Shown here piece by piece: positions 1-62,300 of a stretch of DNA of 64,000 bases. The stretch spans positions 62,001 through 126,000 of the forward strand of contig JAPJBO010000199.1 in NCBI GenBank assembly GCA_030068145.1. Direction: 5' to 3'. The notes under the pieces were generated by a model. That model did not search any database and was not told the DNA's origin. It worked only from the letters and a program-made list of their open reading frames with translations. The first letter of the stretch is position 1. Each line of letters begins with the position of its first letter. The stretch comes from Diplonema papillatum (lineage: Eukaryota; Euglenozoa; Diplonemea; Diplonemida; Diplonemidae). Both the position numbers and the translations under genes were made by a program.

Positions 1-122
1 CCGGCAACCACCACGCGGCCCCCCGCGTCGATCTCGTTGACTCGGAAGTCTTCGCACTTTTCCTTCAGCCGCGCCTGCAGCGGCGCGCGGTTCGGGTCCA
101 CATATATCCAGCAACGCTCCAT
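1..122 (-). CDS. 5' exon of an unrecognised gene running off the left edge
   Basis: An ATG at 122 (minus) opens a frame beginning MERCWIYVDPNRAPLQARLK that stays open to the window edge (about 40 codons). A longer version of the same start lies at 487-645 and reads on through an FVKEYLASEKSLEDQL segment before stopping. Because shards of gene 5' ends lie upstream of their genes elsewhere in this window, I take the edge copy as the real gene and the 283-870 copies as shards; the reverse is possible. The segment is charged and probably helical, and I do not recognise the family. Confidence 0.4.
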   Translation of the reverse strand, partial: MERCWIYVDPNRAPLQARLKEKCEDFRVNEIDAGGRVVVA

Positions 123-282
123 GTTCCCCACCCCGGCGCCTGTACAAAGTTTGAGTATTGGGGGGGGCTATCGCGGAATGAGTGAGCGGTGCATGGAATG
201 AATTTGCATGTACTTTCTGACAAGCTGGGGGGTTTCTGTGAGTAAGATCTACGACGCCCGAACACTGATACACCGATCGACT

Positions 283-870
283 GGTGCCGATCTGGCCCAG
301 CACGCGGCCCCCCGCGTCGATCTCGTTGACTCGGAAGTCTTTGCACGTTTCCTTCCAATATCCCGCAGCGGTGGCCGCGTCAAGGCACGCCGCCTCCTGC
401 GCTTCCTTCTCGGCCGCCGTCGTCGCGGCTGTCGCACAGCTGGTCTTCGAGCGACTTCTCGGAGGCCAGGTACTCCTTGACGAACCCGGGCTGCGGGGGC
501 ATCCCCTTCGCACCGCCGGCAACCACCACGCGGCCCCCCGCGTCGATCTCGTTGACTCGGAAGTCTTCGCACTTTTCCTTCAGCCGCGCCTGCAGCGGCG
601 CGCGGTTCGGGTCCACATATATCCAGCAACGCTCCATGATCACCCACGTTCCCCACCCCGGCGCCTGTACAAAGTTTGAGCAGTGGGGTTACCGCGGGGT
701 GAATGAGTGGTGCATGGACTAGCATGTACGTTATGATCTATGACGCTCAAACACCAAAACACCGATCGATTCGTGCCGATCCGATCCAGCACGCGACCCC
801 TCGCGTCGATCTCGTTGACTCGGTCGCACTTTAGCGCGCTGTCCGGGTCTACGTTCATCCAGATATCGTG
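283..870 (-). pseudogene. Three partial copies of the left-edge exon
   Basis: The segment encoding FRVNEIDAGGRV recurs at about 300-345, 530-575 and 795-820, in the same orientation as the copy at 17-60. The 487-720 copy is the longest and includes the ATG and its 5' flank (ggcgccggggtggggaac). Relative to it, the edge copy lacks a short stretch just before the ATG. The 283-345 and 762-870 copies share a different flank (caccgatcga, then gtgccgat), so they are related to each other by a further duplication. These are exon shards, not extra genes. Confidence 0.55.
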
Positions 871-1540
871 TTGTTTCTATTGGTCCAACATGTATCGTAT
901 AACAGTCATGCCATTTCCAAGCAATGACCTCATGCGCAAGCACATCATGCAGGAAGAAAGCGAAACGTGGCGGCGGCTGCCCGAAGATAACAACAACATC
1001 AGCTCGAGGTACAAACAAGCGGGCTATGCAAAGGCAGGTATACTTAACACAAAGGGATCGGAAAGGAGGCGAGCACCCCAGGCAGGAGCAGCTGGTCCGC
1101 TTGAGCAGTGCGGTGTGAGGCTGGTGCTTTTACAATTCGTCTCGTCGAACAATAGGGGTGCTTACATGCACAGGTTGACCTGAATAGCCAATCGATAAAT
1201 GGACCTTCAGTCCCCAGTTTGACCTGCATTGCCCATTCAATAGGATCTTTAGTAAACAGGTTGAGACATAATGACCCATTCGATGTTAGGACCTTGATTG
1301 AACAGGTTGGTCTGCAGAGCCTATTCGATGAGAGGATCTCGGTTCTCCGTGTCGTGTATTATGGGACTGGTTCATTCTATTTTCACAAAACCGACAACTA
1401 CTTCTACAGCCAGCGGAGTTTCTTTGTTTCGTTCACAATTGTTCGTTTTCTACTGCAACGACAGGACAATCTATCGAGTTGGAGACGGGGAGAGAAAAGA
1501 AAACAAAGGGTTTTAAGCAGAAACGCTGGCTCTCGTGCAT
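871..1540. other. Stretch without a recognisable gene
   Basis: Only short unrelated frames occur on both strands. Around 1160-1320 the motif 'caggttg' recurs at intervals with phrases such as 'cccattc' and 'taggatctt', which looks like a decayed short tandem repeat. Confidence 0.4.
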
Positions 1541-1711
1541 GGGACCCCCCGGGTTCGACGTCGTAGGGCTCACGGGCGAAGCGCCGCCCCGGTTCCGAGC
1601 CGGCGTGATGCCGGCGATCTGCTTAAGCCGGTCGAAAACGCTCGCGTCGCGCATGCCCTGCGCCAGGGCCGCGGTCTCGCTTTTGAGGTGGTTCAGGTGC
1701 CCGGTCAGTGG
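1541..1711 (-). pseudogene. Shard of coiled-coil gene exon 7, downstream of the gene
   Basis: This repeats the 2000-2165 part of exon 7 (encoding KQIAGITPARNRGGASPVSP) with a few substitutions. It lies about 160 bp past the gene's stop codon in the same orientation. The frame is opened into unrelated sequence on both sides. It is one of at least three partial copies of this exon. Confidence 0.75.
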
Positions 1712-1871
1712 GCCCAGTTTTGTTCTATCATTTCACTTGTTAGTTGTCGATAGCGTATTTTTGGCTGAGGTGTCATTCGGATGTGGATCTAAAGCCGTCC
1801 ACGCCGAATTTTCGAACACGGGAAGAAAATCGTCGCAACGTTGCCAACACAACACTTTCCTTCGAGGCCAA

Positions 1872-2396
1872 CTAACGGCCCCACGCCATCGCGTTGACAA
1901 GAGACGAAACCCGGTTTTGAATGTCGCGCAGAGCCTCATCCTGCTGAGACAAGGCCTTATCATACGGCGACGAAGGGCGCGGGTAAGCGCCCCCGGGACC
2001 CCCCGGGTTTGACATCGTGGGGCTCACGGGCGAAGCGCCGCCCCGGTTCCGAGCCGGCGTGATGCCGGCAATCTGCTTAAGCTGGTCGTTTTCGACGCTC
2101 GCGTCGCGCATGCCCTGCGCCAGGGCCGCTGTCTCGCTTTTGAGGTGGTTCAGGTGCCCAGTCAGGTGAGCCCGCTCTTCTTCGAGGCGGATCGCCCGCC
2201 GATCAGCGTCGTCGCGAGAGCTGCGCAGGTGGGAGATGCTGTGCTGGTCGTCCTGCAGCTGCTGGGCTATCATCCGCTGCCGGTGGCCGTCCGACGACTC
2301 GGCAGCCGTAGTGCGGCTCTGCAAGTCATCCAGCTTGTGTCGGAGCTCGAAGCGCTCGTCTCGCAGCTGTTTGTTCTCCGCCTCTGCCGCGTGTTC
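1872..2396 (-). CDS. Coiled-coil protein, exon 7 (C-terminal)
   Basis: This last exon gives 174 codons plus TAG at 1872-1874. It starts after acceptor cctgcag (phase 0), beginning EHAAEAENKQLRDERFELRH, and joins exon 6 (10202-10504) in phase. The first ~110 residues are heptad-rich coiled coil. A Gly/Pro/Ser linker follows, and a short helical tail (QQDEALRDIQNRVSSLVNAM) ends the protein. The whole gene spans 24638 to 1872 on the minus strand with about 865 codons in seven exons, so over 85% of its length is intron. Its composition suggests a structural protein of the cytoskeleton, basal body or flagellum, but I cannot name the family. Shards of this exon occur at 1541-1711, 3555-3692 and 9370-9482. 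Confidence 0.75.
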   Translation of the reverse strand, partial: EHAAEAENKQLRDERFELRHKLDDLQSRTTAAESSDGHRQRMIAQQLQDDQHSISHLRSSRDDADRRAIRLEEERAHLTGHLNHLKSETAALAQGMRDASVENDQLKQIAGITPARNRGGASPVSPTMSNPGGPGGAYPRPSSPYDKALSQQDEALRDIQNRVSSLVNAMAWGR

Positions 2397-2874
2397 CTGC
2401 AGGTGTGGTTTGGCTTTTAGACTGTTTCTTGTAGTAAGCGGTCAGTTTTTTGAAGTCTCCGTTTGACTTGTGAGGCGAGGGGGAAGGGGGGGTTTTCCTT
2501 TTGTGCTGTTAGAGCAGGGTCTGGGCAGTGTGTTTTTTTCATTCCTTTACGTACTTTGTGTCGCTTTTACTTTACTGTTTACTGTCACATGTGGTTGCGC
2601 ATCCGTGTAACTTCGTTTTTGGCGTATGTGACCGATACCAGGTCCACTGCGTTGTGCAAGTGGTCCTGGGCCCCGCTTTTCTTAGCGTTTTTTTTTTGAG
2701 GATCACCCACGATGTGGTTAGCGTTTTGAACGTTTTTCGAGACTGGAGGTCCTATGCACATGCAATGTGAATAGCCTCTATTCGAGCCAACCCGGCTTTT
2801 AAAGTTGCGAAAAGTGTATTGTTTTTTGAACTGGATAATAGTGCGGAGCTAGCTTTTCTTTTTTCCTTCCGAAA

Positions 2875-3554: not shown

Positions 3555-3692
3555 TGGCTGTTATCCGCTGCCGGTGGCCGTCCGACGGTTCGGCAGCGGT
3601 CGTGCGGCTATCCAGCTTGTGTCGGAGCCCGAAGCGCTCGTCTCGCAGCTGTTTGTTCTCCGCCTCTGCCGCGTGCTCCTACAGGTGGTTTG
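3555..3692 (-). pseudogene. Shard of exon 7 start with its splice acceptor, inside intron 6
   Basis: This matches parent 2268-2412 at roughly 90%, including the region just upstream of the exon (cctgtag in place of cctgcag). It lies about 1.2 kb upstream of the real exon. It retains an AG acceptor and about 45 codons of exon sequence, so it could act as a decoy or alternative acceptor. Confidence 0.7.
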
Positions 3693-8771: not shown

Positions 8772-8775
8772 GCAC

Positions 8776-9369: not shown

Positions 9370-9482
9370 GGCTGTCATCCGATGCCAGAGGTCATCCGAC
9401 AACTCGACAGCGGTCGTGCGGCGTCCAGCTTGTGTCTGAGCGCAGACCGTTCGTCTCGCAACTGTTTATTCCCCGCCTCTGT
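9370..9482 (-). pseudogene. Older shard of exon 7 start
   Basis: Similarity to parent 2270-2390 is clear but reduced (for example cagctgtttgttctcc has become caactgtttattcccc). It is in the same orientation, just inside intron 6 on the exon 6 side of the LINE. The greater divergence than the 3555-3692 shard implies separate duplication times. Confidence 0.6.
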
Positions 9483-11068: not shown

Positions 11069-11570
11069 CTCCTTCAGCCTTGTGAGTTGGTCCTGGAGGA
11101 CGGCGTTCTCCTGCCGGAGCGCGGCTTGGTTGGCCTCCCGCTCGGCGGACATCTTCATGCATTCCTGCATCCACTCGTCTTCCTTGGCGAGGGCTTGGTG
11201 CATCGCTTGCTTCTCCTTCTGGAGCTTCGAAAAGGCGACGTTCGCTTCGTTTAAGTTGGTGGTCAGCGTGGCCAAGTGCTCTCGGTCGACGATGTACGCC
11301 TCCTTCAGCGCGAGGTGCTGCGCGTGCAGGTCGTTGTACCGGGAGATTTCGTCGGCGATGTCGCTGCGGACGACGCGGAGATCTTCCCACGCCAGGACCA
11401 GGTCCTCGCGCAGGCGGGTCAGCAGCATCACCGCCGCTTGCTCGTCGCCGTGGTGCCGGGCGGCCTTCGCGGCTTGCTCGGTCTTCTCCGCCCGCTCCCT
11501 GTTCTGCTCCCGCAGCAGCTCCATCTCCAGGTCGCGCGACTCGGCGGGCGCGTGCTGGATTGCGGCTTCC
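11069..11570 (-). CDS. Coiled-coil protein, exon 5
   Basis: The 502-bp exon starts after acceptor acacaatgcag with one base completing an Arg codon begun in exon 4, and ends …DQLTRLKE before donor gtttgtg (phase 0). It is long coiled coil: EMELLREQNRERAEKTEQ, then YNDLHAQHLALKEAYIVDRE, then EREANQAALRQENAVLQDQL. A shard of its 5' part lies in the preceding intron at 11938-12042. Confidence 0.75.
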
Positions 11571-11904: not shown

Positions 11905-11937
11905 TATTGGAAGTCCAGTAAAGTACAGGTGACTCGT

Positions 11938-12042
11938 CCGCAGCATCACCGCCGCTTGCTCGTCGCCGTGGTGCTGGGCGGCCTTCGCGGCTTGCTCGGT
12001 CTTCTCCGCCCGCTCCCTGTTCTGCTCCCGCAGCAGCTCAGG
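11938..12042 (-). pseudogene. Shard of exon 5 in the preceding intron
   Basis: This is a nearly exact copy of 11417-11525 (encoding NRERAEKTEQAAKAARHH). It sits between exon 4 and exon 5 in the same orientation, about 370 bp upstream of its parent exon. Confidence 0.8.
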
Positions 12043-37707: not shown

Positions 37708-38030
37708 AAAAGCCTCCTTCAACACGTTGTTGACCAGCTTGCAGAAGTCCGGGTACTGAGTGCCACTCGAAGACAAGGAAAGCCGCCACAGCCCCAGGTT
37801 CTCGTAGTTGGGCCGATGGTGCGCCTCGATCATGCGGACCGCCGCGTCGACAATAGCCTGCACCTCGTCCCGGCAGGCGAGGTTCGCGACAACGAGCGCG
37901 TGGGCGCCGCCGTCCAGCGGCACGTGCGCCAGCAGCTCGATCTGCCCCACGCCCCGCCGCCGGGCCCGAAGGGCCGCTCGTACGGGCCCCCCGGTTTCGC
38001 CACCTCGGCCGAGAGCGGAGCCGATAAAAA
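37708..38030 (-). pseudogene. Distal shard of the PPR-like gene 3' end
   Basis: It repeats the last ~95 codons of the gene (LGLWRLSLSSSGTQYPDFCK; IELLAHVPLDGGAH) with small changes and lacks the GFVLGQ segment. Same orientation, about 1.3 kb downstream of the parent. Confidence 0.85.
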
Positions 38031-38221
38031 AGGCATGACAACCCAAGGTGACGTTCAAAGGCGAGTAAGCGCAGTGAGTTTCGCAAGCACTCATCCTGGA
38101 GGCCCAGCTCCTTTCAACACTTTGCCCGGACCTATCGAGGAAAGCCTCCGAAATGCCCCAAAGTCTCGTGGTTTAGCTCTTGGCTATCATGAGAGATCCA
38201 AGGTGACGTTCAAGTCGAGTC

Positions 38222-38545
38222 ACAAACACCTATCCTGAAGGCCTCGCTCCTTCAACACGTTGTTGACCAGCTTGCAGAAGTCCGGGTACTGAGTGCCGCT
38301 CGAAGACAAGGAAAGCCGCCACAGCCCCAGGTTCTCGTAGTTGGGCCGATGGTGCGCCTCGATCATGCGGACCGCCGCGTCGACCGCCGCCTGCACCTCG
38401 TCCCGGCAGGCGTGGTTCGCGACAACGAGCGCGTGGGCGCCGCCGCCCAGCGGCACGTGCGCCAGCAGCTCGATCTGCCCCAGAACGAAGCCGAGCGCAT
38501 CCTCCGCCGCCAGCCCCACCCCCGCCGCCGGGCCCGAAGGGCCGC
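38222..38545 (-). pseudogene. Proximal shard of the PPR-like gene 3' end, interrupted by rDNA
   Basis: It repeats parent 39271-39560 including the LGFVLGQIELLAHVPL region. It continues to gggcccgaagggccgc, where an 18S rRNA fragment begins. After the fragment (38686-38720) it resumes with ggtttcgccacctcggccga, as in the distal shard. Confidence 0.85.
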
Positions 38546-39270: not shown

Positions 39271-41706
39271 TCACAAGCACCTATCCTGAAGGCCTCGCTC
39301 CTTCAACACGGTGTTGACCAGCTTGCAGAAGTCAGGGTACTGAGTGCCGCTCGAAGACAAGGAAAGCCGCCACAGCCCCAGGTTCTCGTAGTTGGGCCGA
39401 TGGTGCGCCTCGATCATGCGGACCGCCGCGTCGACCGCCGCCTGCACCTCGTCCCGGCAGGCGTGGTTCGCGACAACGAGCGCGTGGGCGCCGCCGTCCA
39501 GCGGCACGTGCGCCAGCAGCTCGATCTGCCCCAGAACGAAGCCGAGCGGATCCTCCGCCGCCAGCCCCGCCCCCGCACCGCCCAGCCCGAAGGACCGCTC
39601 GCGGTACGGACCCCGCTCCGCGAACGAAGCGGCGCACAGCCCGTGCTCGGAGGGCCCGGCGCCGGCCGCGTCGGCCGAGAGCGGAGCCGCGTACAACTCC
39701 GCCACGCCGTCGGGGAACTCTACCGACGACGGAAACAGCCGCTGGAGCTCTCGGTACGTATCTTGCGGTATCGTGTCCGCCAAAACCTTCGACTCGCAAG
39801 GTTCCGGCGCCCCGGGCCCTGACTCGGCGGCCGCCGCCCCTGGCTTCGGCGAGCCACCAGGCAACTCGGATGCTTCCGAGGAACCTGCTTCGGGTGGGTC
39901 GGATGCTGCTGATTTTCGCTTTGGTTTTCGTTGCGGCGAAGACGGATTGGGCTCGGGGGAACCCACGGAGCCTGCCCCGCCGTCGCCTTTTCCCCCCGCC
40001 GCGCCGTTCCGCTCGGGCGGGGCGGAAGAATCCCGCCCTGTTTTCACGGGCTCCGGCGGACCAGGCAAACCTCGCCCCGATGCCCCGCCGGGTGCGCCAG
40101 AGGAATCTCGCACCGGCTCGCCGCTGCCCGCGCGGCGCTCGGCCCGCCGGGTTTGCCACTCGAGGCAGCTGCGGAGGAGGGCGTTGATGGTCGACAGATT
40201 CGGGTGCATGTTCGGCTTCCCCGCGCGTTCACGGTAGATGCCGAGTCCTACCTCGTGCCCTGGGAGGGCTGTCAGGATGGCATTCGCCGCCGCGATGTCC
40301 AGCGGCAGCTCCGAGTAGTAAAACGCCGCGACTATCTGCTCCGCCACCTTCTCGTTCCCGACGGCCCCCGCGCTGTGCAGCGCCCGCAGAAACCCCCGCG
40401 AGGTGTGCGCGAAGGCTGGGGTTGCACCGTGGGGCTCGGCCGCGTACGCCTCGGCGTACAACGCGACGAAATAATCCATCTGCAGCCACAGTCCGACTAC
40501 GTCGGCGTGGCGGCCCCAGGCGTCGAGCTGGGTGAGGGTGTGCTCGTACAGCTTTTGGTGCCCGGTGCGCGCCCGCGTGTAGGTGTCCGGGAGATCTTCC
40601 CGGCGGTGGGCGTCTGCCAGCACGCGCATGACCCATCCAGCCGGCGTCGCCGCTCTGCAGTTGAAGCAGGCTGATTCAACGGCGCGCCGGCTGCCCGCGC
40701 CCTCGCGCTCGCAGTGCGCCGCGGCCGCCCGGGCGACGACCGCCGCGAGCTCCAGCTCCCCTTCCGTCAGCACCTGCCGTGCCTCCGGCAGCCTCGCGCC
40801 CGCTGCAACCGACACACGGCCCGCGTCAAACCCCGCGGAGTCCGACCCCCCGGCGATGGCCCCCGCGTAGATGGAGGTGGCGTGGAGGTTCAGCTGCGGG
40901 CCGAGCGACTGTATCGGCGACGCGAATCCTTCGGCGCCCCGCTCGTTCAGGGCGGCGAGGTTCTCGAAGACCGAGGAAAGCGAAATTGTGTTCTTCGGCA
41001 GGCCGGGGTCGGCCGTCAGGAAGGACAGGACAGGGGCGTAGTGGGGCTGCTTGTACAGCGAGAGCAGCAGGTGCTGGTAGGTCTGCGCGTTCGGCTCGGC
41101 GCCCGCCAGCAGCCGCCACCCGTAGACGAGCCACGCGAGCACTGGCGACGTGGCCCATAGGCGGGAGAGCAGCGCGTCAAGCACAGGGGAGGTGAGCTGA
41201 TCGGACAGGAGAGGCACTCCCTCTTCTAGCATCGTAGAAAGCAGCTCATCCCAGTGTGGTGTGGGGGCTGCGGTGAGGCCGAGGATGTCGATGAGCAGAG
41301 CGTATGTTTCCGGCAGGAAAGGGACGGATTCCCCGTCGAAGCGGGTCTGTACGTGCTCGAGGGCGGCGTCGTGCTCGCCGGTGGCGACGAGGGCCTGCGC
41401 TTGGAGCGTCTGCAGCAGGCCGGGCGGCGGCGGGTCGACGCCTTTGCGCGTCGAGGCGTCGAGCCACAGCTGGTGGCCCTTCGCGGCCGGGCCGCCGTGG
41501 CCGTGTGCGGCAAGCGCCCGGCACCAGCCGTGCAGCGTCCTCTTGTCGAAGCTGAAGTCGCCGGCGCCGGCCAGCTGGGCCTCCGCCGCCCGAAGGCCCG
41601 CCTGCGCCTTGGCGGTCTCGTCCGACGCCCACGGCTCGGCCTTGCCGCCCAGCTCCACCCGCATGTGGTACCATCGCCGAACCGCGCGGCAGCGGGTTCC
41701 GCGCAT
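39271..41706 (-). CDS. Pentatricopeptide-repeat-like protein, probably organellar
   Basis: The product is 811 aa from ATG 41706. The N-terminus MRGTRCRAVRRWYHMRVELG is Arg-rich and suits a mitochondrial presequence. Residues ~25-480 are paired helices in PPR-like register (RTLHGWCRALAAHG, ETYALLIDILGL, NAQTYQHLLLSLYK, NLSTINALLRSCLEW). A disordered Gly/Pro/Ser/Lys linker (~490-620) follows. A C-terminal ~180-residue domain ends LGLWRLSLSSSGTQYPDFCK plus LVNTVLKERG. PPR proteins bind organellar RNA for processing, editing or translation; diplonemid mitochondria need many such factors. The frame stays open to an upstream ATG at 41796, but that part lies in dispersed repeat R2, and acceptor cacgtgcag at ~41733 precedes 41706. 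Shards of its 5' and 3' ends flank it on both sides. Confidence 0.75.
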   Translation of the reverse strand: MRGTRCRAVRRWYHMRVELGGKAEPWASDETAKAQAGLRAAEAQLAGAGDFSFDKRTLHGWCRALAAHGHGGPAAKGHQLWLDASTRKGVDPPPPGLLQTLQAQALVATGEHDAALEHVQTRFDGESVPFLPETYALLIDILGLTAAPTPHWDELLSTMLEEGVPLLSDQLTSPVLDALLSRLWATSPVLAWLVYGWRLLAGAEPNAQTYQHLLLSLYKQPHYAPVLSFLTADPGLPKNTISLSSVFENLAALNERGAEGFASPIQSLGPQLNLHATSIYAGAIAGGSDSAGFDAGRVSVAAGARLPEARQVLTEGELELAAVVARAAAAHCEREGAGSRRAVESACFNCRAATPAGWVMRVLADAHRREDLPDTYTRARTGHQKLYEHTLTQLDAWGRHADVVGLWLQMDYFVALYAEAYAAEPHGATPAFAHTSRGFLRALHSAGAVGNEKVAEQIVAAFYYSELPLDIAAANAILTALPGHEVGLGIYRERAGKPNMHPNLSTINALLRSCLEWQTRRAERRAGSGEPVRDSSGAPGGASGRGLPGPPEPVKTGRDSSAPPERNGAAGGKGDGGAGSVGSPEPNPSSPQRKPKRKSAASDPPEAGSSEASELPGGSPKPGAAAAESGPGAPEPCESKVLADTIPQDTYRELQRLFPSSVEFPDGVAELYAAPLSADAAGAGPSEHGLCAASFAERGPYRERSFGLGGAGAGLAAEDPLGFVLGQIELLAHVPLDGGAHALVVANHACRDEVQAAVDAAVRMIEAHHRPNYENLGLWRLSLSSSGTQYPDFCKLVNTVLKERGLQDRCL

Positions 41707-41754
41707 GGCACGCCGACACCCCTCCCCACCTGCACGTGGTTTGGTTTCGAACTG

Positions 41755-41880
41755 TTTTGTTTTGCGATAACCAGTGACTATCTCCTTAGAGAGCATCTTT
41801 GCTACAGCTTAAAGGGAACGTTGGCAGCGGTTTGACCTAAACGCGTACAAGCCAAATCGCACAAACAAAAGCACAGGACA
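41755..41880 (-). repeat. Dispersed repeat R2 abutting the PPR-like gene
   Basis: This is the inverted copy of 25783-25910. The same junction between R2 and the gene's 5' end is repeated at 42465-42590, so R2 was already present when the gene's 5' end was duplicated. Confidence 0.75.
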
Positions 41881-42061
41881 GTGCCTCGCCCAAGCTCGTT
41901 TCCCCGGCTTAAGGCAGGCACTCAACATTCCCTTGCACTAGTGCTATCAGTTACAAAGACGTGTTCTTACTTCTCCCTTTCTTCTAGGCAGTTCTCGTCA
42001 GACAATACGAAGAGCAGAAACTCTGGCGGGTAGGGTGTGTACAAGGGCTCAGTGCCCTTGC

Positions 42062-42460
42062 GTGTTGAGGCGTTGTGCTCGCCGGTGGCGACGAGGGCCT
42101 GCGCTTGGAGCGTCTGCAGCAGGCGGGGCGGCGGCGGGTCGACGCCTTTGCGCGTCGAGGCGTCGAGCCACAGCGGGTGGCCCTTCGCGGCCGGGCCGCC
42201 GTGGCCGTGGGCGGCGAGCGCCCGACGCCAGCCGTGCAGCGTCCTGTTGTTCGAAGCTGAAGTCGCCGGCGCCGGCCAGCTGGGCCTCCGCCGCCCGCAG
42301 GCCCGCCTGCGCCTTAGCGGTCTCGTCCGACGCCCACGGCTCGGCCTTGCCGCCCAGCTCCACCCGCATGTGGTACCATCGCCGAACCGCGCGGCAGCGG
42401 GTTCCGTGCATGGCACGCCGACACCCCTCCCCACCTGCACGGGGTTTGGTTTCGAACTGT
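42062..42460 (-). pseudogene. Proximal shard of the PPR-like gene 5' end
   Basis: It copies 41370-41735 with the ATG, the acceptor (cccgtgcag in place of cacgtgcag) and R2 beyond. The frame is shifted at gttgttcgaagc (parent cttgtcgaagc) and the region after GEH is fused to unrelated DNA. Confidence 0.9.
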
Positions 42461-42634
42461 TTTGTTTTGCGATAACCAATGACTATCTCCTCAGAGAGAA
42501 TCTTTGCTACAGCTTAAAGGGAACGTTGGCAGCGGTATAACCTGAACGCGTGCAAGCCAAATCGCACAAACAAAAGCACAAGACAGTGCTCCTTTCAGGA
42601 CCACCATCGACAGCACCTCCTGCTATGGCGGGTG

Positions 42635-42905
42635 CCCTTGCGTGTCTAGGCGTCGAGCCACAGCTGGTGGCCCTTCGCGGCCGGGCCGCCGTGGCTGAGC
42701 GCCAGCCGTGCAGCGTCCTTTTGTTCGAAGCTGAAGTCGCCGGCGCCCGCCAGCTGGGCCTCCGCCGCCCGCAGGCCCGCCTGCGCCTTGGCGGTCTCGT
42801 CCGACGCCCACGGCTCGGCCTTGCCGCCCAGCTCCACCCGCATGTGGTACCATCGGCCACGCAGACGCCAGCACACCCACACCCCTCCCCACCTTCACGT
42901 GGTTT
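42635..42905 (-). pseudogene. Distal shard of the PPR-like gene 5' end
   Basis: It contains the KAEPWASDETAKAQAGLRAA block and the HQLWLDA block with the intervening region shortened. The ATG region is rewritten (tggccgatggtaccacatg). It diverges from the parent more than the proximal shard does. Confidence 0.85.
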
Positions 42906-42934
42906 GTAGCGTTTGTTGTGGGTTATACCCGAAC

Positions 42935-46643: not shown

Positions 46644-49238
46644 CGTCATGGCGATCCGAAGTGCCTCGCAGCCATAGCCGAGGGGCAGAGAGTTCGCTTC
46701 TCGGGGCCGGCCGAAGCCCGAGTCTTCGGATAGGGAGTGGAAGGACATCGCCGCAGAGTCGTCGCACGCCATCTGGTCGAGGAGCACACAGTCGCGGATG
46801 TAGATCGCGGCCACTTTCTGCCGCGTGTGCAACTCGCGCCGACCGGCGAGGCACCGGCCCGCCCTCTGCAACACGCACACCGCCTCATCCACCTGCTCCG
46901 CCACGTCGACCACCCCCGTCAACCCACGCTTTGCCGCCCTGTTTTCCACCCGCAACCGGCGCCCCGCATACTCCGCCGCCCCGGCCACCATCCCCCGCAC
47001 GCGCTTGCGCGCGAGGACCGAGCGGATCTTCAGCTGGATCACCAGCGCCGCCCCGTTGGCGCCCTTGAACTGTTCGCCCCGCCGCCGCGCCCTCGCGCCG
47101 CTGCGCGGCGATCGCACCGGGGAGTCGAGCACCGGCGAGGCGGGTGCCGCCGTTGCGTCCGTTCTGCCGCGCAGGGAGGCGTACGCCTGCTCCAGCTCCA
47201 GCAGCCGGCTCGAGTACGTGGCCACGTTGGCCTTCCGGACCGCCAGGCGGGACTTCGCGAAGTAGCTCCGCGCCAGGGCTTGAAACTTGATGACCGCCGC
47301 CTCGGTCATGCTGTCCAACCCGCCACCCGACCCAGTATCGTTTGCCTCTCTCCCCGGACCCCCGACGGAGTTTGCGGGCTCGGCTGCTTGCAAACCCGCA
47401 AACCCGACCCCATTGCCCAGGCCGGCGGCATTCTCATCGGGGGTTTCGTCTTCAATCCCTGGGCAAGGCCTGGCTTGCCGTTCTGCGCCGCTTTGCCCGC
47501 GCTCACCCGGCATTGAGGCAGCCGAAACCCGTCTCTGTTGGTCGGTTGGATTCCCGTGCTCCGCGTCGCCTTGACCTTGACCGGACACGGCGGCAGGAGA
47601 CGCCCCTGGCTGCTGAACGGTTTGATTCCCGCTCTCCGCGTCGTCGCCTTGACTCGGCATTGAGGCAGCCGAAACCCGTCTCTGTTGATCGGTTGGATTC
47701 CCGCGCTCCGCGTCGCCTTGACCTTGACCGGACACGGCGGCAGGCGACGCCCCTGGCTGCTGAACGGTTTGATTCCCGCTCTCCGCGTCGCCTCGGCCCA
47801 ACGCAGCCGCAGCGGACGCAACCGTCAGCGGCCCTGCCCCACCTTTTTGATGCTGTGCACCGCCTGCGACATAGCAAGGTGAAAGCTCGGAAGTGTCCGG
47901 CGGCCCGGGTTTGCGCGCGCCGCCCGCGCCGAGGAGCCTGTCGAGAGAGCTGCGGAGGCCAGCGGTGTACTCCTTCGCGTTGAGCCCCCTGGACCGGGAC
48001 ACCATGGCCGACCGGCGGGCGAGCTCGTTGCTCATGGCTTGCAGCTCTCCGCAGTGGAAGGCTAGGAGCACGTCGCTGCACTCGGCGGCGCGGCCCCGCT
48101 CGATCCGGTCCCTCTCCCTGCCCTCGCCTACCGCGAGCCCCGCCGCCGCGCCCCAGTCCGCGTGAACTTCAGCCCACGCGGCCGCGCCGGCGGACGCCGG
48201 GCGGCCCCGCTCCCGCGGCGCCATCACGCAGCCCTCCACCGCCGCCGGCAACGGGGTCGTCGCGGCGAACGCTTGCTGGCGGCGGGGGTCGTCGCTGGGG
48301 GTTCTGAGGGACGCGGAAACGCAAGAATTTAGCGGCGGCCGGGGTCCGCCGTTGGAATGGTGGCTTGTGCAACTCCCCGCTTGCTGCGGGTGGGCGGAGC
48401 GCTGCGGCCGCGCCGTGTGCGGCCGCGGGGGGTGCGCGGGCGGGTGGGGCTTGTCGCAGTGTCGCGGTGCCGTCGGCACCCGGGTCCGGAGGTGGTGCTC
48501 GCCGGCCTGCCAGAGGTGTACAACTGGCGAGCACGAGCCGGCGATGGGTTTGAGGGTGAACGGCAGGGCCACGGGGGGCGACGGCGTGAGTCCGGGGGAG
48601 GCGGCGCACGGGCGGTGCGACGCGGCGGACAGGTGCGGCGAGCCAGGTGACTTCCGCACGGTGTCAAACGCGAGTTTGTTCGCCAGCGCGAGGTGCCCCG
48701 CTGCACTCCTCGCCCGGGCTTCCCACGTCGAGAGGGAAGCGCACGCCGCCAGTTGATCGAGAGCGATCGCAGTGCGGCATTGCGCTTGCACTGTGGCTAG
48801 TTCGATAATCTCGTCCCACAGGGCATCGAACGCTTGCCGCAGGATCCCCGCGCTGCTGAGGAGGCGGGACCGGCCTTCCGCCTCCTCCGTGGCAACCCGG
48901 TGCCGCCCCGCGGTTTCCGCTATGAAAACGACGACGTGCGCCCTCCGCAGCGCCTCCTTCGCGGCGCAGAATTCCCGCTCGATGCCCTCGTCTGCGCAAA
49001 TCCCCCGGAGCAGCCGGTTCCCCCGCTCGTGCTCGCGCTTCCGCAGCAAGCCCCGGTCCACCTTCAGCAGCACCGCGCTCCCGAAGCCGTCGAGCTCGCC
49101 CCGCGTCGCCCGCTCCGCCTGCGCGGCGGCCATGCGGCCGTACGCCTCCTCCTTCTCCACCCGCGCGCACTCCTCGTAAAACAGCCGCTGGTCCTCCCGC
49201 CGGTCCGCCCCGATGAAAAACAGGTCCAAACACGCCAT
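46644..49238 (-). CDS. IQ-motif protein with internal repeats
   Basis: ATG 49238 begins MACLDLFFIGADRREDQRLF. The exon is taken to end at donor gtgtgtgc (46643) after …ALRIAMT; the frame itself runs to 46479, but that tail overlaps dispersed repeat R7, so splicing is more likely and the last exon is not found. Residues ~1-200 are helical and charged. A long His/Pro/Ser-rich region follows. Two 49-residue repeats (DAESGNQTVQQPGASPAAVS … DAERGNPTDQQRRVSAASMP) lie near 480-580. Three IQ-like motifs (IKFQALARSYFAKSRL, VIQLKIRSVLARKRVRG, VLQRAGRCLAGRRELHTRQK) would bind calmodulin or EF-hand light chains. Confidence 0.7.
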
Positions 49239-54839: not shown

Positions 54840-55372
54840 TACTCTTGAAACTGCATCGAAGTGCCTGCCGCTGTTTATCACAGTGAATCACGGTCCACCA
54901 CGGTCTGTCAGGTCCATCCCTAGTACCTAGAGCTGCATCGAATTGCCCGGTGCTGTATTCTTCGGTCTATCACGGTCTATCAAGAGGGGATGGACCGGCT
55001 CAGTACGGGTGGTGGACAAAAGAGTTCGGATATCTTCGAAGTACGCAACATCGGCGCTGGTGCGTTGGAACGGGGTTGCCGTCAGCCTGTCGACGGGCGG
55101 CGCGGACGAGGTCGAACGGGGTTTGAGGGGAGGCAGCGCGGACAGCTGCGGCTCCGAGAGCCGGCGGGCCGTACGCTACTCAGAAGATAGGCCGTCGATC
55201 TTCGCTTACACGGTGAAGTCCAGTCTCAGAAGCTGGAGTGAAAGCTGGAGTTAAAAAGCGGGTGTCACACCCGCTTTTCGGGTGTGGATTTGCACGCGTT
55301 TTGGTTGTGGCATACCGGCTTTTCGGGTGTGACTCGGGCACACCCTCTTCAACTCCAGCTTCTGAGGCTGGA
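54840..55372. repeat. R3 copy, old gene shard and a foldback element
   Basis: 54840-55000 is R3. 55060-55160 is a strongly diverged shard of the 56369-56480 exon end (gacgaggtcgaacggggttt). 55219-55238 and 55353-55372 are 20-bp inverted arms (tccagtctcagaagctggag against ctccagcttctgaggctgga) enclosing repeated gcttttcgggtgtg, a 154-bp foldback element. Confidence 0.6.
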
Positions 55373-55884
55373 CCTCATCGTGTAGGCTGCGTAAACGTTC
55401 CGCTAAACAGAACAGAACAGCTCTGATCACACATCTCCAGGTGTTCAGGGTTTGGCTCCTGAATGTATCTCCTGGCCAAGTGTAAAAAACGGCTGCACAG
55501 GTTGACCGTGTGGGTGCCAAAGTGGCGGCGCCCCGTGGCAGGGCGTGCAAGGTTAAGCCGGGCCATCCCCTCTTGATACTGGGAAAACAGGCAATCATAT
55601 GCCGCGGATGTTCCTGATAGGCAGTTTCAGGACAGGCTTCGTAGACCTCGTATGGGTCAGCGTGGCGTACATAGCCACATGAGCACGATGTCGGTGTATA
55701 CCATCACCTACGTACACCACGAGGACTGTGTATGCACAGCACGAGCTCCTCATCCTCTAGTGCATGCAGCTACGGTGGCTGCTGTGTGGTGGTGCATACA
55801 CACGAATGTGGCTGCTGCTACGTACACCCACACCCACCAGCATCTGCCTCTACGTCATACCATCCTACATCCTGTAGAGGATAC

Positions 55885-56310
55885 TTAGCTGGAAATGGCC
55901 GAACACCCGGAGCGTACATCTTCGGGAGCGCCGCCGTCAAGTCGCGTACGGGTGGTACTGCCACCGGACAGAAGAGTTCGACGGAAGGCTGTCTCCGAAG
56001 CTGGCATTCGCCGTCAGGCCGTTGACGAGCAGCTCGGACGAGGTCGAACGGGGTGCGAGAAGGCTGCACGACAGCTGCCTGTCCGAGAGTCCGCGGGTAC
56101 CTACGGGTGGCACCACCGCGTGGTACAGCGACGAGAACGAGCCGCGCGGGCTCCGGGCCTGCTCGGAGGCCAAGCTCGTCTCGGCGGCGAGCAGCACCGC
56201 CCGTGTGGCAGCACACTACCCATCACACTCCCCAGTGCCGCCCGCGGGCAGCTGCAGCTGAATCTGCAAGAGCCACGGATGATCCTGATAGGCAGCTTCA
56301 GGACAGGAGA
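55885..56310 (-). pseudogene. Shard of the LRR/SH3-like gene 3' end and its flank
   Basis: Exon end (SSELLVNGLTANASFGDSLP) plus downstream flank are copied in tandem with the parent, period about 430 bp. Identity is about 90%, with frame damage near the LLAAETSLASEQ block. Confidence 0.85.
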
Positions 56311-56368: not shown

Positions 56369-57316
56369 TCAAGTCGCGTACGGGTGGTGCTGCCACCGGA
56401 CAGAAGAGTTCGACGGAAGGCTGTCTCCGAAGCTGGCATTCGCCGTCAGGCCGTTGACGAGCAGCTCGGACGAGGTCGAACAGGGTTTGAGGGAAGCCTG
56501 CACGGACAGCTGCCTCTCCGAGAGCCTGCGAGCACCACCTACTACGGGCGGCACCGCCGCGTGGTACAGCGACGAGAACGAGCAACGCGGGCTCCGCGCC
56601 TGCTCGGACGCCAAGCTCGTCTCGGCGGCAAGCAGCTTTTCCGCCAAGCCCGCCAGCCGGGCCTCCCACGCCCGCAGCTCGGCGGCCCACTCGCCGCACG
56701 CCGCGCAGCCGGAGCACCCGCCCGCGTGCGCATCGCGCGGCCGATCACTCACCGCAGTGCCGCCCGCCGGCAGCTGCAACTTGTACAGCCACCCGCCGTC
56801 CTCTCCCCGCTCGCGCACCACGGAAAGCTGCGGGAACAACGGCGGAAGGGCGGCAATCAGCGCCGGGATGTCCGAGAGCCCAAGCTCTTCGCGCTGGGAC
56901 CGCAGGGACGGACACGCCGCTCCGTACTCCCTGTGGTAGTGGCCCTTGAGGAGCGTGTGGACGAGGCCGTCGCTGGAAGGCGGACTCACCTTGCGCACAA
57001 CCGCGACGATCTCCTCGCCGAGCCGGCGCAGCGCCGCGGCGCCGAAGAGCGGGCGGGCGTCGGCTGCCGGAGCGTTGAACTTCTTCTGGCGGAGCAGCGG
57101 CGTGCCGTCCTTCCGCAGGGACACCCAGCCCCGCGGCGCCCGGCCCCGCGTGGGCACCAACGAGTTGCCGACGCAGACCTCAACCCGGCAGTCGCCGTGG
57201 CTGATGGCGCCCCGGGTCACTGCGACCAGGCTGCCCTTCTTCAGCGAGGCGATGGTGTCGCTGGCGGGGCTCGCCTCCCGCTGGACGTCGACGCCGTCGG
57301 CCAACACTTCCCACAC
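56369..57316 (-). CDS. LRR/SH3-like protein, exon 2 (SH3-like and coiled coil)
   Basis: The exon has 315 codons plus TGA, phase 0 after acceptor ccactccag. It begins VWEVLADGVDVQREASPASD and continues through SLKKGSLVAVTRG to GWVSLRKDGTPLL, an SH3-like barrel of the 'variable loop' type. A central region rich in Leu/Pro follows, then a CxxC pair (SGCAACGEW), a coiled coil (ELRAWEARLAGLAEKLLAAE) and a Ser/Asn-rich tail. Its first codons continue naturally from LRR exon 1 (…DGDGEIR|VWEVLADG). A donor-like gtacgcg right before the stop leaves open another exon. Confidence 0.65.
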   Translation of the reverse strand: MWEVLADGVDVQREASPASDTIASLKKGSLVAVTRGAISHGDCRVEVCVGNSLVPTRGRAPRGWVSLRKDGTPLLRQKKFNAPAADARPLFGAAALRRLGEEIVAVVRKVSPPSSDGLVHTLLKGHYHREYGAACPSLRSQREELGLSDIPALIAALPPLFPQLSVVRERGEDGGWLYKLQLPAGGTAVSDRPRDAHAGGCSGCAACGEWAAELRAWEARLAGLAEKLLAAETSLASEQARSPRCSFSSLYHAAVPPVVGGARRLSERQLSVQASLKPCSTSSELLVNGLTANASFGDSLPSNSSVRWQHHPYAT

Positions 57317-57599
57317 CTGGAGTGGATATAAACTTGAATTTTTCTTTGAACCAACCACACCCTGAAGGCTGTGTGAAGTTCTCTAATCGACTTTTCGTGG
57401 TGCATCAACTCCCTCAGTGAAACTGTGATATACTCGTGCATAAATATTTTTAGAGTTAAAGTTCGCCTGAGACTCCGGAATGGACAGCCGCCACCGGTCT
57501 TTGTCAAATGGGTCCGTTTAAAAATAAAACTAGCATGTGAAAGGAGCTATTTGTGACCGACCAAGCCCCAGGTGGATAAGTTGCCGGCATGGACCAGTC

Positions 57600-57725
57600 G
57601 CCGTGGCTGATGGCGCCCCGGGTCACTGCGACCAGGCTGCCCTTCTTCAGCGAGGCGATGGTGTCGCTGGCGGGGCTCGCCTCCCGCTGGACGTCGACGC
57701 CGTCGGCCAACACTTCCCACACCTG
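57600..57725 (-). pseudogene. Shard of exon 2 start with its splice acceptor, in the intron
   Basis: It is an almost exact copy of 57191-57323, including ccactccag, and diverges immediately beyond. It lies 285 bp upstream of the real acceptor, so it offers a second functional-looking acceptor in the same phase. Confidence 0.9.
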
Positions 57726-57849
57726 GAGTGGGGTTTAATGGGATATTCCGAAACTACTAGGTATGCTCATACCTCTCTCGAGCCAGTGAGATTCTACGAA
57801 AACTGGTTCAAGTTCTAATTACTTTGGAGTTGATCTGATTATCCTGAGA

Positions 57850-58290: not shown

Positions 58291-58469
58291 CACCGACTAT
58301 GTCAATGGGTACGTTCAAGTCAAGATAGTAACCAGTGGAAACCAGTTTAATGCTTACGCAGTCTTGTCGCAGTATTGTCTGCCTTTCATGCATGTTTGAT
58401 GCTAGCATCAAACTTTATGAGTACCTTCGCGCGAGGGTAATTCTTTCGCACACGAAGAAAGTTAAAGTT

Positions 58470-58725
58470 CGCCGACCATACCCGAATCTCCCCGTCTCCG
58501 TCCGCGTTCCCGACCACCGCCATCGCAGCTTTGCACCAGCCGGTCTGCTTCAGGCGGACCCACACGTACGCGTATTCGAGCTCCGCGCCCGAGAAGAACA
58601 GCCGGTCCCTCCCCTCGACGGGGCTCTCGTCGAGGAACCGCAGCGACGGCAGGTGGTGCGCGACGAGGGCGCGGTACAGCTCTGTCTCGCCCGCTCCCCA
58701 GTCGCCGGCGCCCCGCGCATTTTAA
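58470..58725 (-). pseudogene. Shard of LRR exon 1 3' end with its donor, in the intron
   Basis: It copies 59060-59300 (ELYRA… to GDGEIR) plus about 35 bp of intron after gtatggtc. It lies about 350 bp into the intron, in the same orientation. Confidence 0.9.
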
Positions 58726-59069
58726 TCCGGAGCATGCCTGCGAACACTGTTCCCGGGGTGCTACCAAAAAAACTGGCGACAACTGGCGACCCCCCCCTCG
58801 ATGGCAGAGCATGAACATGCGTTTTTCGCAAAACCCTAAGTTTGGGCTCGAGCCCGTCAGATGTCGAGCTTCGAAGCCCCCCTGAGGGCCAGGATGAAAA
58901 AATCGGATTCACAGTTCAAAAACGTCCTCAGACCAAAGAAAATGACCCCCAGATGGGCTCTTCCATATTTGAACGGTCGCCAGGAGAATGACTGATATAG
59001 GGTATTTTGAGTGTACATCGCGCGAGTAAGTATCCACACACGACAAAAGTTAGAGTTCGTCGACCATAC

Positions 59070-59813
59070 CCGAATCTCCCCGTCTCCGTCCGCGTTCCCG
59101 ACCACCGCCATCGCAGCTTTGCACCAGCCGGTCTGCTTCAGGCGGACCCACACGTACGCGTATTCGAGCTCCGCGCCCGAGAAGAACAGCCGGTCCCTCC
59201 CCTCGACGGGGCTCTCGTCGAGGAACCGCAGCGACGGCAGGTGGTGCGCGACGAAGGCGCGGTACAGCTCTGTCTCGCCCGCTCCCCAGTCGCCGGCCCC
59301 CGCGGCGGCGGCGGCGCCGCCCTGGCCGAGGCCGACGGCGTGCGAGCAGCACGGGTTGCCCAGCAGCGAGAGGTACTTCAAGGAGGCGCTCCCGCGGAGG
59401 TCGGACATGGCGGACGAGAGGTCCGTGACGCTATTCTTGTTGAGCCAGAGGGTTTCGAGGTCCGGCAGGGAGCCGCCCAAAAAGTTGCCGAGGCGGTGGA
59501 TCCGGTTGCCGTCGGCCACGAGGTGTTTCAAGCTCGGAAACAGCGCCGCGACGGCTTGCAGGTCGCTGAGGTAGTTCATGGAAACGTCGACAGACACCAC
59601 CTTCCGCCGCACATCCTCCGGCACCCGATCGCGTAGCTGGTCCAAGGAGGTGAGGCCCACGTTCACAGCGCTGACGCTGGTTTCCGTGAACCGCACGCTT
59701 TCCAAGGCGGGCTCCGCCCTCCCGTGCAGCTCGGGCCGCGACCAATACGGCCGCGGCCCCGCGCCGCCGCCGCCGGCGGCGGATGGGTACGGGCTGCCTC
59801 CGCTCGCCCACAT
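59070..59813 (-). CDS. LRR/SH3-like protein, exon 1 (leucine-rich repeats)
   Basis: The exon has 248 codons from ATG 59813 (MWASGGSPYPSAAGGGG) to donor gtatggt, phase 0. A Gly/Pro-rich lead is followed by SDS22-like LRRs: VVSVDVSMNYLSDLQAVAAL, SLKHLVADGNRIHRLGNFLG, DLETLWLNKNSVTDLSSAMS, SLKYLSLLGNPCCSHAVGLG. An LRR-cap-like end (YRAFVAHHLPSLRFLDESPV) follows, and then a strand (AELEYAYVWVRLKQTGW). An in-frame TAG 45 bp upstream of the ATG fixes the start. SDS22-type proteins commonly act in axonemes or as phosphatase or cytoskeletal adaptors. With exon 2 the product is about 563 aa. Confidence 0.75.
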
Positions 59814-60096
59814 GCGACTCGCATCCACACGGTCGTGCCCGCCGCCCTACTGCGAACCCCCCTCCCGCATGGGGTCCTTGTAACGGGGTGGATGAGAGTC
59901 CCTTCCGAGCTTCCCTTTTCAGAGTGTAAGTTCACTTAGCGATCCGGGGTTATAAAGTCTCCGGGTGACCGTTGAAAGGTTCCTTCAAGGTATCGTATAC
60001 TAGTCAGTGTTTTTTCGTGATGACAACAAATTGTCGACTCGAAAGAGAACGCTGGGATGCAGCGTATTTGGGAGGAGATAAGCCTGACGATCATGT

Positions 60097-60252
60097 TCAA
60101 GAAAGACAGGTGGGTGGTTTCTGCTGCGCTTCCTTCTCCGCCGCCGCCGCGGATTCGGCTTCTTCCTTCGCCGCCGCCTCGTACAGCTTCTCTCTGTCCT
60201 CGAGCGCCTTCCGCAGGTCCTCCACCTCCTGCTTGAGGGGTTCGCTGCCCAT
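60097..60252 (-). CDS. Short coiled-coil ORF, copy 1
   Basis: ATG 60252 encodes MGSEPLKQEVEDLRKALEDR, then an Ala/Glu/Lys helix ending EKEAQQKPPTCLS (51 aa). It is duplicated unchanged at 61440-61595. It may be a first exon (possible donor gtctttc) of the LRR gene or of a lost neighbour. Its tail is fused to LRR shards twice. Confidence 0.4.
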   Translation of the reverse strand: MGSEPLKQEVEDLRKALEDREKLYEAAAKEEAESAAAAEKEAQQKPPTCLS

Positions 60253-61439
60253 TTTGCTGCTTAGCTATTCAAATGAGTCGACGGCTGCATCGGGAGCCGC
60301 CCAAAAAGTTGCCGAGGCGGTGGATCGGGTTTCCGTCGGCCACGAGGTGTTTCAAGCTCGGAAAACAGCGCCGCGACGGCTTGCAGGTCGCTGAGGTAGT
60401 TCATGGAAAAACGTCGCAGACGGACACCACCTTCCGCCGCACATCCTCCGGCGCCCGGTCGCGCCGCTGGCCCAAGGAGGTGAGGCCCACGTTCACAGCG
60501 CTGACGCTGGTTTCCGTGAACCGCACGCTTTCCAAGGCGGGCTCCGCCCTCCCGTGCAGCTCGGGCCGCGACCACTACGGCCGCGGCCCCGCGCCGCCGC
60601 CGCCGGCGGCGGGTGGGTACGGGCTGCCTTCGCTCGCCCACATGCGACTCGCATCCACACGGTCGTGCCCGCCGCCCTACTGCGAACCCCGGGGTCCTTG
60701 TAACGGGGTGGATGAGAGTGTCCCTTTTTCAGAGTGTAAATCCGGGGGTTTAAAGTCTCCGGGTGACCGTTGTCGTGAAGGTTCCTTCCAGGTATCGTAT
60801 ACTAGTCAGTGTTTTTTACGTGATGACAACGAATTGTCGACTCGAAAGAGAACGCTGGGATGCAGCGTATTTGGGAGGAGATAAGCCTGACGATCATGTT
60901 CAAGAAAGACAGGTGGGAGGCTTCTGCTGCGCTTCCTTCTCCGCCGCCGCCGCCGCACATCCTCCGGCGCCCGGTCGCGCTGGCCCAAGGAGGTGAAGCC
61001 CCCGTTCACAGCGCTGACGCTGGTTTCCGTGAACCGCACGCTTTCCAAGGCGGGCTCCGCCCTCCCGTGCAGCTCGGGCCGCGCGCACTACGGCCGCGGC
61101 CCCGCGCCGCCGCCGCCGGCGGCGGGTGGGTACGGGCTGCCTCCGCTCGCCCACATGCGACTCGCATCCACACGGTCGTGCCCGCCGCCCTACTGCGAAC
61201 CCCCCTCCCGCATGGGGTCCTTGTAACGGGGTGGATGAGAGTCCCTTCCGAGCTTCCCTTTTCAGAGTGTAAGTTCACTTAGCGATCCGGGGTTATAAAG
61301 TCTCCGGGTGACCGTTGAAAGGTTCCTTCAAGGTATCGTATACTAGTCAGTGTTTTTTCGTGATGACAACAAATTGTCGACTCGAAAGAGAACGCTGGGA
61401 TGCAGCGTATTTGGGAGGAGATAAGCCTGACGATCATGT

Positions 61440-61595
61440 TCAAGAAAGACAGGTGGGTGGTTTCTGCTGCGCTTCCTTCTCCGCCGCCGCCGCGGATTCG
61501 GCTTCTTCCTTCGCCGCCGCCTCGTACAGCTTCTCTCTGTCCTCGAGCGCCTTCCGCAGGTCCTCCACCTCCTGCTTGAGGGGTTCGCTGCCCAT
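61440..61595 (-). CDS. Short coiled-coil ORF, copy 2
   Basis: This is identical in sequence to 60097-60252, carried by the 1343-bp tandem duplication. Which copy, if either, is used cannot be told. Confidence 0.35.
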   Translation of the reverse strand: MGSEPLKQEVEDLRKALEDREKLYEAAAKEEAESAAAAEKEAQQKPPTCLS

Positions 61596-62300
61596 TTTGC
61601 TGCTTAGCTATTCAAATGAGTCGACGGCTGCATCGGGAGCCGCCCAAAAAGTTGCCGAGGCGGTGGATCGGGTTTCCGTCGGCCACGAGGTGTTTCAAGC
61701 TCGGAAAACAGCGCCGCGACGGCTTGCAGGTCGCTGAGGTAGTTCATGGAAAAACGTCGCAGACGGAAACCACCTTCCGCCGCACATACTCCGGCGCCCG
61801 GTCGCGCCGCTGGCCCAAGGAGGTGAGGCCCACGTTCACAGCGCTGACGCTGGTTTCCGTGAACCGCACGCTTTCCAAGGCGGGCTCCGCCCTCCCGTGC
61901 AGCTCGGGCCGCGACCACTACGGCCGCGGCCCCGCGCCGCCGCCGCCGGCGGCGGGTGGGTACGGGCTGCCTCCGCTCGCTGGGATGCAGCGTATTTGGG
62001 AGGAGATAAGCCTGACGATCATGTTCAAGAAAGACAGGTGGGAGGCTTCTGCTGCGCTTCCTTCTCCGCCGCCGCCGCCGCACATCCTCCGGCGCCCGGT
62101 CGCGCTGGCCCAAGGAGGTGAAGCCCACGTTCACAGCGCTGACGCTGGTTTCCGTGAACCGCACGCTTTCCAAGGCGGGCTCCGCCCTCCCGTGCAGCTC
62201 GGGCCGTGACCAATACGGCCGCGTCCCGCCGCCGGCGGCGGCTGAGTACGGGCTGCCTCCGCTCGCCCACATGCGACTTGCATCCACACAGGTGACTCTT

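What the first reader, a model, noticed from the sequence alone, without database searches (positions are those of the whole stretch)
1..62300. Genes are bordered by partial, same-strand copies of their own ends (exon shards)
Eight of the nine gene or exon regions with clear boundaries show it. 5'-end copies lie upstream (left-edge gene 283-870; PPR-like gene 42062-42905; LRR gene 59830-62300). 3'-end copies lie downstream (coiled-coil 1541-1711; MED20-like 29219-29364; SAM 33130-33218; PPR-like 37708-38545; SH3-like 55060-56310). Exon-edge copies lie in the adjoining intron (3555-3692, 9370-9482, 11938-12042, 57600-57725, 58470-58725). All keep the parent's orientation and lie within about 7 kb, mostly within 1.5 kb. 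Different shards of one parent show different divergence, so it is recurrent. Plain dispersed duplication would not give this positional rule; repeated local tandem duplication with later decay would, and it would enlarge introns and spacers.
Basis: partly seen in the sequence, partly recalled or inferred. Interest (0 to 1): 0.88.

Follow-up and report, generated by a model that had tools for sequence, protein, structure and literature searches.

The report
Local gene-fragment repeats in Diplonema
In the single-celled marine organism Diplonema papillatum, short stretches of DNA are repeatedly copied close to themselves in the same direction, which leaves broken pieces of genes beside the intact genes; the pattern is real but was already described in this species' genome paper.

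Summary
In detail: each of the 13 places named holds a same-strand partial copy of a neighbouring segment; a reversed-window control gives 0 hits. The genome is Diplonema papillatum. Its genome paper (PMC10161547; sections 5, 7, 9 and passages read) already reports dozens of genes with adjacent repeats of their own parts, one array shown with PacBio support. So: already known.

What I add. In the window plus 250 kb from five other contigs, non-dispersed direct pairs (at least 40 bp) under 2 kb outnumber inverted ones 61 to 1, against 21 to 16 beyond. Coding involvement exceeds expectation in this window (23 of 27) but not in the sample (11 of 34). Tandem arrays in coding calls have periods divisible by 3 in 11 of 11 rows (8 loci), noncoding arrays do not. 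Five coding segments searched against the 271-Mb assembly gave 9 extra copies, 9 of 9 within 1.6 kb and same-strand; one other shard block has a distant inverted copy. Plain adjacent tandem duplication is not the whole story: 16 of 72 chained pairs are adjacent. The molecular step is inferred.

The parts
1995..2173 (-). parent segment, coiled-coil exon (coding call 1878-2404)
1541..1715 (-). 3'-side shard of 1995-2173, 91.6%; abuts a dispersed-element fragment (1716-1812)
2265..2412 (-). parent of intron shards (5' edge of the same exon)
3556..3692 (-). upstream intron shard, 86.5%
9370..9481 (-). second, more diverged upstream shard, 75%; the LINE 4023-8777 lies in between
11418..11521 (-). 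parent segment in coding call 11067-11573
11936..12039 (-). upstream shard, 98%; only other copy found in the genome search
29216..29371 (-). 3'-side shard, 80%; only other copy found in the genome search
33649..33729 (-). parent, 3' end of the SAM-domain ORF
33134..33214 (-). 3'-side shard, 97.5%
33284..33577 (.). dispersed element with inverted ends between SAM parent and shard (about 40 places listed, a lower bound)
37714..38545 (-). two 3'-side shards (both 97%); the only other copies found in the genome search
41365..41884 (-). parent, 5' end of the same ORF and upstream flank
42069..42906 (-). two 5'-side shards, 96% and 83.5%
55078..56259 (-). 3'-side shards (55078-55169; 55886-56259, 58 bp from the parent after chaining)
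57189..57325 (-). parent, 5' edge of the SH3-like exon with 9 bp of presumed intron
57595..57731 (-). upstream shard, 100%; the shard-spacer-exon block recurs at C199:270405-270967
59018..59304 (-). parent, 3' part of the LRR exon plus about 58 bp beyond the coding call
58427..58717 (-). 3'-side shard, 95.5%
58720..58999 (+). truncated copy of a dispersed element filling the gap between LRR shard and parent (truncation of the left end inferred from ten other copies)
59468..62289 (-). LRR gene 5' part and its upstream partial copies (about 91-98.5%)
1..832 (-). left-edge repeats, near-adjacent unit of about 514 bp (-151..334 vs 363..823)
47508..47790 (-). internal tandem repeat of period 147 in the IQ-motif ORF: a duplication kept inside an exon

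Best explanation
These are the 'repeat-bounded gene structures' already described for Diplonema papillatum. Short segments (interquartile length 91-316 bp in the window, 77-221 bp in the sample) are repeatedly duplicated in direct orientation a few hundred bases away, in noncoding DNA as well as at genes; the copies then diverge and are interrupted by insertions and, I infer, deletions. Gene-edge shards are the subset in which the copied piece includes coding sequence and the parent gene stayed intact, so the apparent rule (5' pieces upstream, 3' pieces downstream, exon edges in the adjoining intron) is short range plus survival of intact genes. Shown in 314 kb and in single searches: local, same-strand, of graded age, not enriched at coding sequence in the sample, in frame inside coding arrays. 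Inferred: the molecular step. I think error-prone repair of staggered breaks or local template switching most likely (direct orientation, short units, frequent gap or filler between the copies), with adjacent tandem duplication as one outcome. The first two rivals below concern this molecular step, so the odds do not add to one.
For: Published description in the same species, one array with PacBio support. Non-dispersed direct versus inverted pairs of at least 40 bp: 61:1 under 2 kb (window 28:0, sample 33:1), 21:16 beyond. Five genome-wide searches in which every listed candidate was scored: 9 of 9 extra copies within 1.6 kb and same-strand. Sample coding involvement at expectation, 11 of 34. 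Tandem arrays in coding calls: 11 of 11 rows (8 loci) with period divisible by 3; noncoding arrays 17/18/14 by period modulo 3. Side rule 30 of 33, sample 9 of 9. A LINE splitting a 179-bp dimer whose comparable parts are 100% identical shows how adjacent copies become gapped. Near-adjacent examples: left edge, SH3-like 3' end.
Against: The repair step is not shown. The genome is reported as haploid and no second genome was available, so no empty site could be compared. Two of the youngest gene-edge pairs lack any detectable remnant of the rest of the unit. The window is denser than the sample and its coding enrichment is strong (23 of 27, reached by none of 1000 shifts; pooled P 0.028); I take this as choice of window but cannot exclude a local cause. 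With dispersed repeats included, direct pairs also prevail beyond 2 kb (91:48). Without the 40-bp limit, 3 non-dispersed inverted pairs under 2 kb appear against 56 direct in the window and four regions. One shard block has a distant inverted copy. Among direct pairs lying wholly in coding calls, 3 of 4 have spacing divisible by 3; the fourth lies in the LRR array on the strand opposite to the gene.
Confidence: 0.75

Rival explanations
1. Plain adjacent tandem duplication (unequal exchange or slippage) plus later deletion and element insertion explains all shards; no other step is needed.
For: Side rule 30 of 33, and 16 of 19 where both sides were geometrically possible; near-adjacent cases; tandem dimer split by a LINE; tandem arrays in the window (32 rows, some overlapping).
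Against: 16 of 72 chained pairs are adjacent; among the 13 with at least 95% identity, 2. Subtracting the dispersed sequence that I could recognise brings only 5 more pairs to 70 bp or less (recognition incomplete). Pairs at 57189 and 11418 show no remnant of the rest of the unit. In the MED20-like gene the skipped part is a C-terminus shared with a 35% identical protein from an unnamed transcriptome, so the copy passed over native sequence.
Confidence: 0.35
2. Insertion-linked duplication: an insertion (truncated element or other filler) is placed between two copies of a 100-300 bp target, as an exceptionally long target-site duplication or a filled-in staggered break.
For: LRR pair: repeats of about 290 bp bracket a 280-bp truncated element, 2 and 18 bp from its ends. 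Window LINE bracketed by identical 54-bp repeats. SH3-like 5' pair: a dispersed element starts within about 5 bp of the exon-side copy.
Against: SAM and 11418 pairs: the elements in the gap have inverted ends and do not abut the copies. The C5 LINE has only about 20 bp of target duplication within a pre-existing dimer (by eye). Ten other copies of the LRR-gap element showed no long direct repeat bracketing it in about 450 bp each side, but they extend further left, so their own left ends were probably outside what I fetched.
Confidence: 0.2
3. RNA-mediated origin: shards are cDNA patches of (pre-)mRNA inserted near the gene.
For: Same orientation as the gene and closeness to it would fit priming on nascent transcripts (inference only).
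Against: Shards carry sequence beyond the exon calls (LRR about 58 bp; SH3-like 9 bp before the presumed splice site); the direct bias is also seen in noncoding sequence. Pre-mRNA is not excluded by this.
Confidence: 0.05
4. Assembly artefact.
For: [quoted passage not shown]
Against: Many copies differ by up to 25-29%; the paper shows PacBio reads across one such array. I had no reads for this window.
Confidence: 0.03

Closest known systems
Repeat-bounded gene structures of Diplonema papillatum (Valach et al. 2023, PMC10161547; section 7 with Fig. 2 legend read in full)
   Same: Same species; parts of gene 5' regions repeated upstream, 3' ends of first exons repeated in the intron or 3'UTR; degenerate copies (71-96% in the figured array); PacBio support for that array
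   Different: The paper speaks of dozens of cases and offers no mechanism in the parts I read; here strand, distance, frame and side statistics are added, and the same process is seen in noncoding DNA
Small tandem duplications from repair of staggered double-strand breaks (Schimmel et al. 2021, PMC8355091, passages read; Vaughn and Bennetzen 2014 seen only in its reference list)
   Same: Short direct duplications, there with a shown break-repair origin
   Different: Those are mostly under 100 bp and adjacent; here many copies are separated by hundreds of bases and the repair step is untested
Long target-site duplications of non-LTR retrotransposons (rotifer R9, recalled only; my look-up failed)
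   Same: Long direct repeats bracketing an element, as at the LRR intron
   Different: Fits one or two of the pairs examined, not the others

Membership tests
Repeat-bounded gene structures of D. papillatum | part of a gene's 5' region repeated upstream | tested here: met
   845-aa ORF and LRR loci, left edge
Repeat-bounded gene structures of D. papillatum | exon 3' end repeated in the intron or 3' flank | tested here: met
   LRR 58427-58717, SAM 33134-33214
Repeat-bounded gene structures of D. papillatum | confirmed by long reads and absent from mature mRNA | not testable with these tools
   no reads available; the paper states this for DIPPA_19968
Simple adjacent tandem duplication | direct orientation and local | tested here: met
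   61:1 direct under 2 kb
Simple adjacent tandem duplication | copies abut at birth | tested here: inconclusive
   16 of 72 chained pairs have a gap of 20 bp or less; some gaps are later insertions
Simple adjacent tandem duplication | shard carries the exon edge and flank | tested here: inconclusive
   17 of 33 reach the called edge, 16 do not
Long target-site duplication of a non-LTR element | repeats abut both ends of an inserted element | tested here: inconclusive
   approximately met at LRR (2 and 18 bp), not met at SAM and 11418
Processed retrocopy | intron-less, mRNA-derived | tested here: not met
   LRR and SH3-like shards include sequence beyond the exon calls; splice sites inferred from sequence only

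The most novel reading that the evidence does not exclude
Most shards are born gapped, by a break-repair or template-switch process with 100-300 bp overhangs that copies a neighbouring same-strand patch and often places filler DNA (truncated elements, perhaps rRNA or mitochondrial pieces) between the two copies; this one process would supply much of the intron and spacer growth and the scattered rRNA and mitochondrial fragments of diplonemid genomes.
Probability: 0.2. Interest if true: 0.55.

Novelty: already known. Interest (0 to 1): 0.3.

Why it matters
It confirms and quantifies a published curiosity of a little-studied, abundant marine lineage, and suggests that it is a general mutational habit of the genome rather than a feature of genes. 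[quoted passage not shown] papillatum, reported as haploid and transformable, a possible system for watching short local duplications arise.

Tried and rejected
Dinoflagellate origin (suggested by same-strand genes): spliced-leader motifs gave 0 hits in the loci then held; the organism was identified through a named protein on a contig of identical length. LTR/TRIM elements as the source of the direct repeats: set aside for gene shards because one copy is coding exon. Long target duplication as the general rule: set aside after the SAM, 11418 and C5 cases. The distant shard-spacer-exon block at C199:270 kb was read as a re-copied unit; the direction of copying is unresolved.

Limits of the counts. 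Remnant test: 10 comparisons, one of them (LRR, 18 bp) too short to mean anything; P below 0.05 in 2 (a C60 array, SH3-like 3' end), 0.08 at SAM, 0.10 at C300, higher in the rest. In one search the column 'one' counts pairs with at least one coding copy, because of a boolean addition in my script; I use it in that sense. Side rule: 39 pairs touched coding calls; 6 were not scored (3 without clear parent, 3 with both copies in one coding segment). Of the 3 exceptions, 2 have as parent a plus-strand call inside the minus-strand LRR array and 1 lies in the multi-copy left edge; at least 2 of the 30 agreeing pairs also rest on plus-strand calls. Pair counts include several members of one family and are not independent. 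In one search the coding arrays include transposase-like ORFs (C10; compare), two rows look like copies of one family (C10 7130, C150 11506), and the coding calls themselves favour open frames. The reversed control was run on the window only. Genome searches scored only the best 40 candidates, so copy numbers there are lower bounds.

Literature. Searches: in a library of open-licence papers. 'Diplonema' with 'repeat-bounded' gave one paper. Of 37 papers holding 'Diplonema papillatum' and 'nuclear genome', 20 were listed and I opened one; so other descriptions may exist. The supplements of the genome paper were not seen.
Full report
What was checked. Coding segments were called with a small HMM trained on long ORFs of the window and the sampled regions. 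In the window 30% of bases are called coding on the minus strand and 3% on the plus strand, in keeping with the unidirectional gene clusters reported for this species.

Organism. A protein on contig C150 matches 'Ferric reduction oxidase 7 [Diplonema papillatum]' on a contig of the same length, 323535. The genome paper (PMC10161547) was read in part: outline, passages, sections 5, 7 and 9. [quoted passage not shown] One array of 12-13 copies is shown, with PacBio support. Passages of section 8 report about 3600 scattered 28S rRNA pieces and more than 1400 mitochondrial insertions. The kind of structure is therefore already in print for this species.

Is it a rule about genes? I compared the window with 250 kb from five contigs picked without looking at their content; a larger planned sample could not be fetched. 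After masking tandem arrays (three or more copies, or unit under 50 bp) and setting aside pairs also hit on other sampled contigs, direct pairs of at least 40 bp under 2 kb number 61 (window 28, sample 33) and inverted ones 1 (sample); beyond 2 kb the numbers are 21 and 16. With dispersed pairs included they are 78:1 and 91:48. Without the length limit, in the window and four regions, the count under 2 kb was 56 direct to 3 inverted. Pairs of at least 50 bp with at least one coding copy: window 23 of 27 (13.4 expected from 1000 circular shifts, none reached it); sample 11 of 34 (11.8 expected, P 0.63); pooled 34 of 61 (25.3 expected, P 0.028). The copying is local and same-strand in every region but the density differs, and the coding link is strong only in this window. 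Copies beside coding calls also occur on contigs 60, 300 and 5.

How local? Five coding segments were searched against the 271-Mb assembly, every listed candidate being scored: MED20-like (1 extra copy), coiled-coil exon (1), 3' end of the 845-aa ORF (2), a segment on C60 (3), a segment on C300 (2). All 9 extra copies lie within 1.6 kb and on the same strand. Searches over the left-edge/coiled-coil, SAM and SH3/LRR regions, in which only the best 40 candidates were scored, add one exception: the shard-spacer-exon block 57188-57740 recurs about 150 kb away on the other strand at 97%.

Selection filter. Tandem arrays lying in coding calls have periods divisible by 3 in 11 of 11 rows (8 loci), while noncoding arrays split 17/18/14. 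Of four direct pairs lying wholly within coding calls, three have spacing divisible by 3 and one, in the LRR array and on the strand opposite to the gene, does not. The coding calls favour open frames and some loci are transposase-like, so this is supportive, not decisive. Of 39 pairs that touch coding calls, 33 could be scored: 30 put the shard on the side of the nearer exon end (sample 9 of 9), and where both sides were geometrically possible 16 of 19. Short-range copying plus survival of intact genes would give this.

Anatomy. Of 72 chained local pairs, 16 are adjacent or overlapping (20 bp or less), 6 have gaps of 21-150 bp, 29 of 151-600 bp and 21 longer (array members counted separately). 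Some gaps are later insertions: a LINE with about 20 bp of target duplication splits a 179-bp dimer on contig 5, a dispersed element with inverted ends lies between the SAM copies, and the LRR copies bracket a truncated dispersed element almost end to end. Other gaps are native gene sequence: in the MED20-like gene the skipped stretch encodes a C-terminus shared with a 35% identical protein from an unnamed transcriptome. For two very young pairs no remnant of the rest of the unit is found. A mixture of adjacent tandem duplication and gapped copying, both plausibly from local break repair or template switching, fits best; the molecular step is inference.

Verdict. Real, seen in each sampled region though at different density, and already described in kind.

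Noticed in passing
window 23613-23801 (-): Fragment of LSU rRNA (Rfam RF02543, 56.9 bits); fits the roughly 3600 scattered 28S pieces reported for this genome.
   Followed up: partly
window 3953-8777 (-): LINE with an incomplete endonuclease domain (RVT_1 and Exo_endo_phos 118-204 of 225), bracketed by identical 54-bp repeats related to a 53-bp unit that forms an array at 9776-10152.
   Followed up: partly
window 57327-57431 and 28873-28961: About 100-bp element, 95-100% identical at more than 30 listed places (lower bound), next to a presumed splice site in one case.
   Followed up: no
L034 (C199:268900-272500): Distant opposite-strand block with about 1.5 units of exon shard plus spacer, copied from or to the SH3-like locus.
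   Followed up: partly
L033 about 890-3700 (C5): LINE (RVT_1) inserted in a 179-bp tandem dimer whose comparable parts are identical, with CT microsatellites on both outer sides.
   Followed up: yes
window 33127-33140: At the end of the SAM shard, 8 bp are the reverse complement of the corresponding 8 bp of the parent (sequence printed), as if a tiny inversion occurred at the copy end.
   Followed up: no
C150 region 1559-22792 (L019-L021): Four same-strand copies of an approximately 1-kb segment (97-99.5% identical) within about 21 kb, called coding in at least two copies.
   Followed up: no
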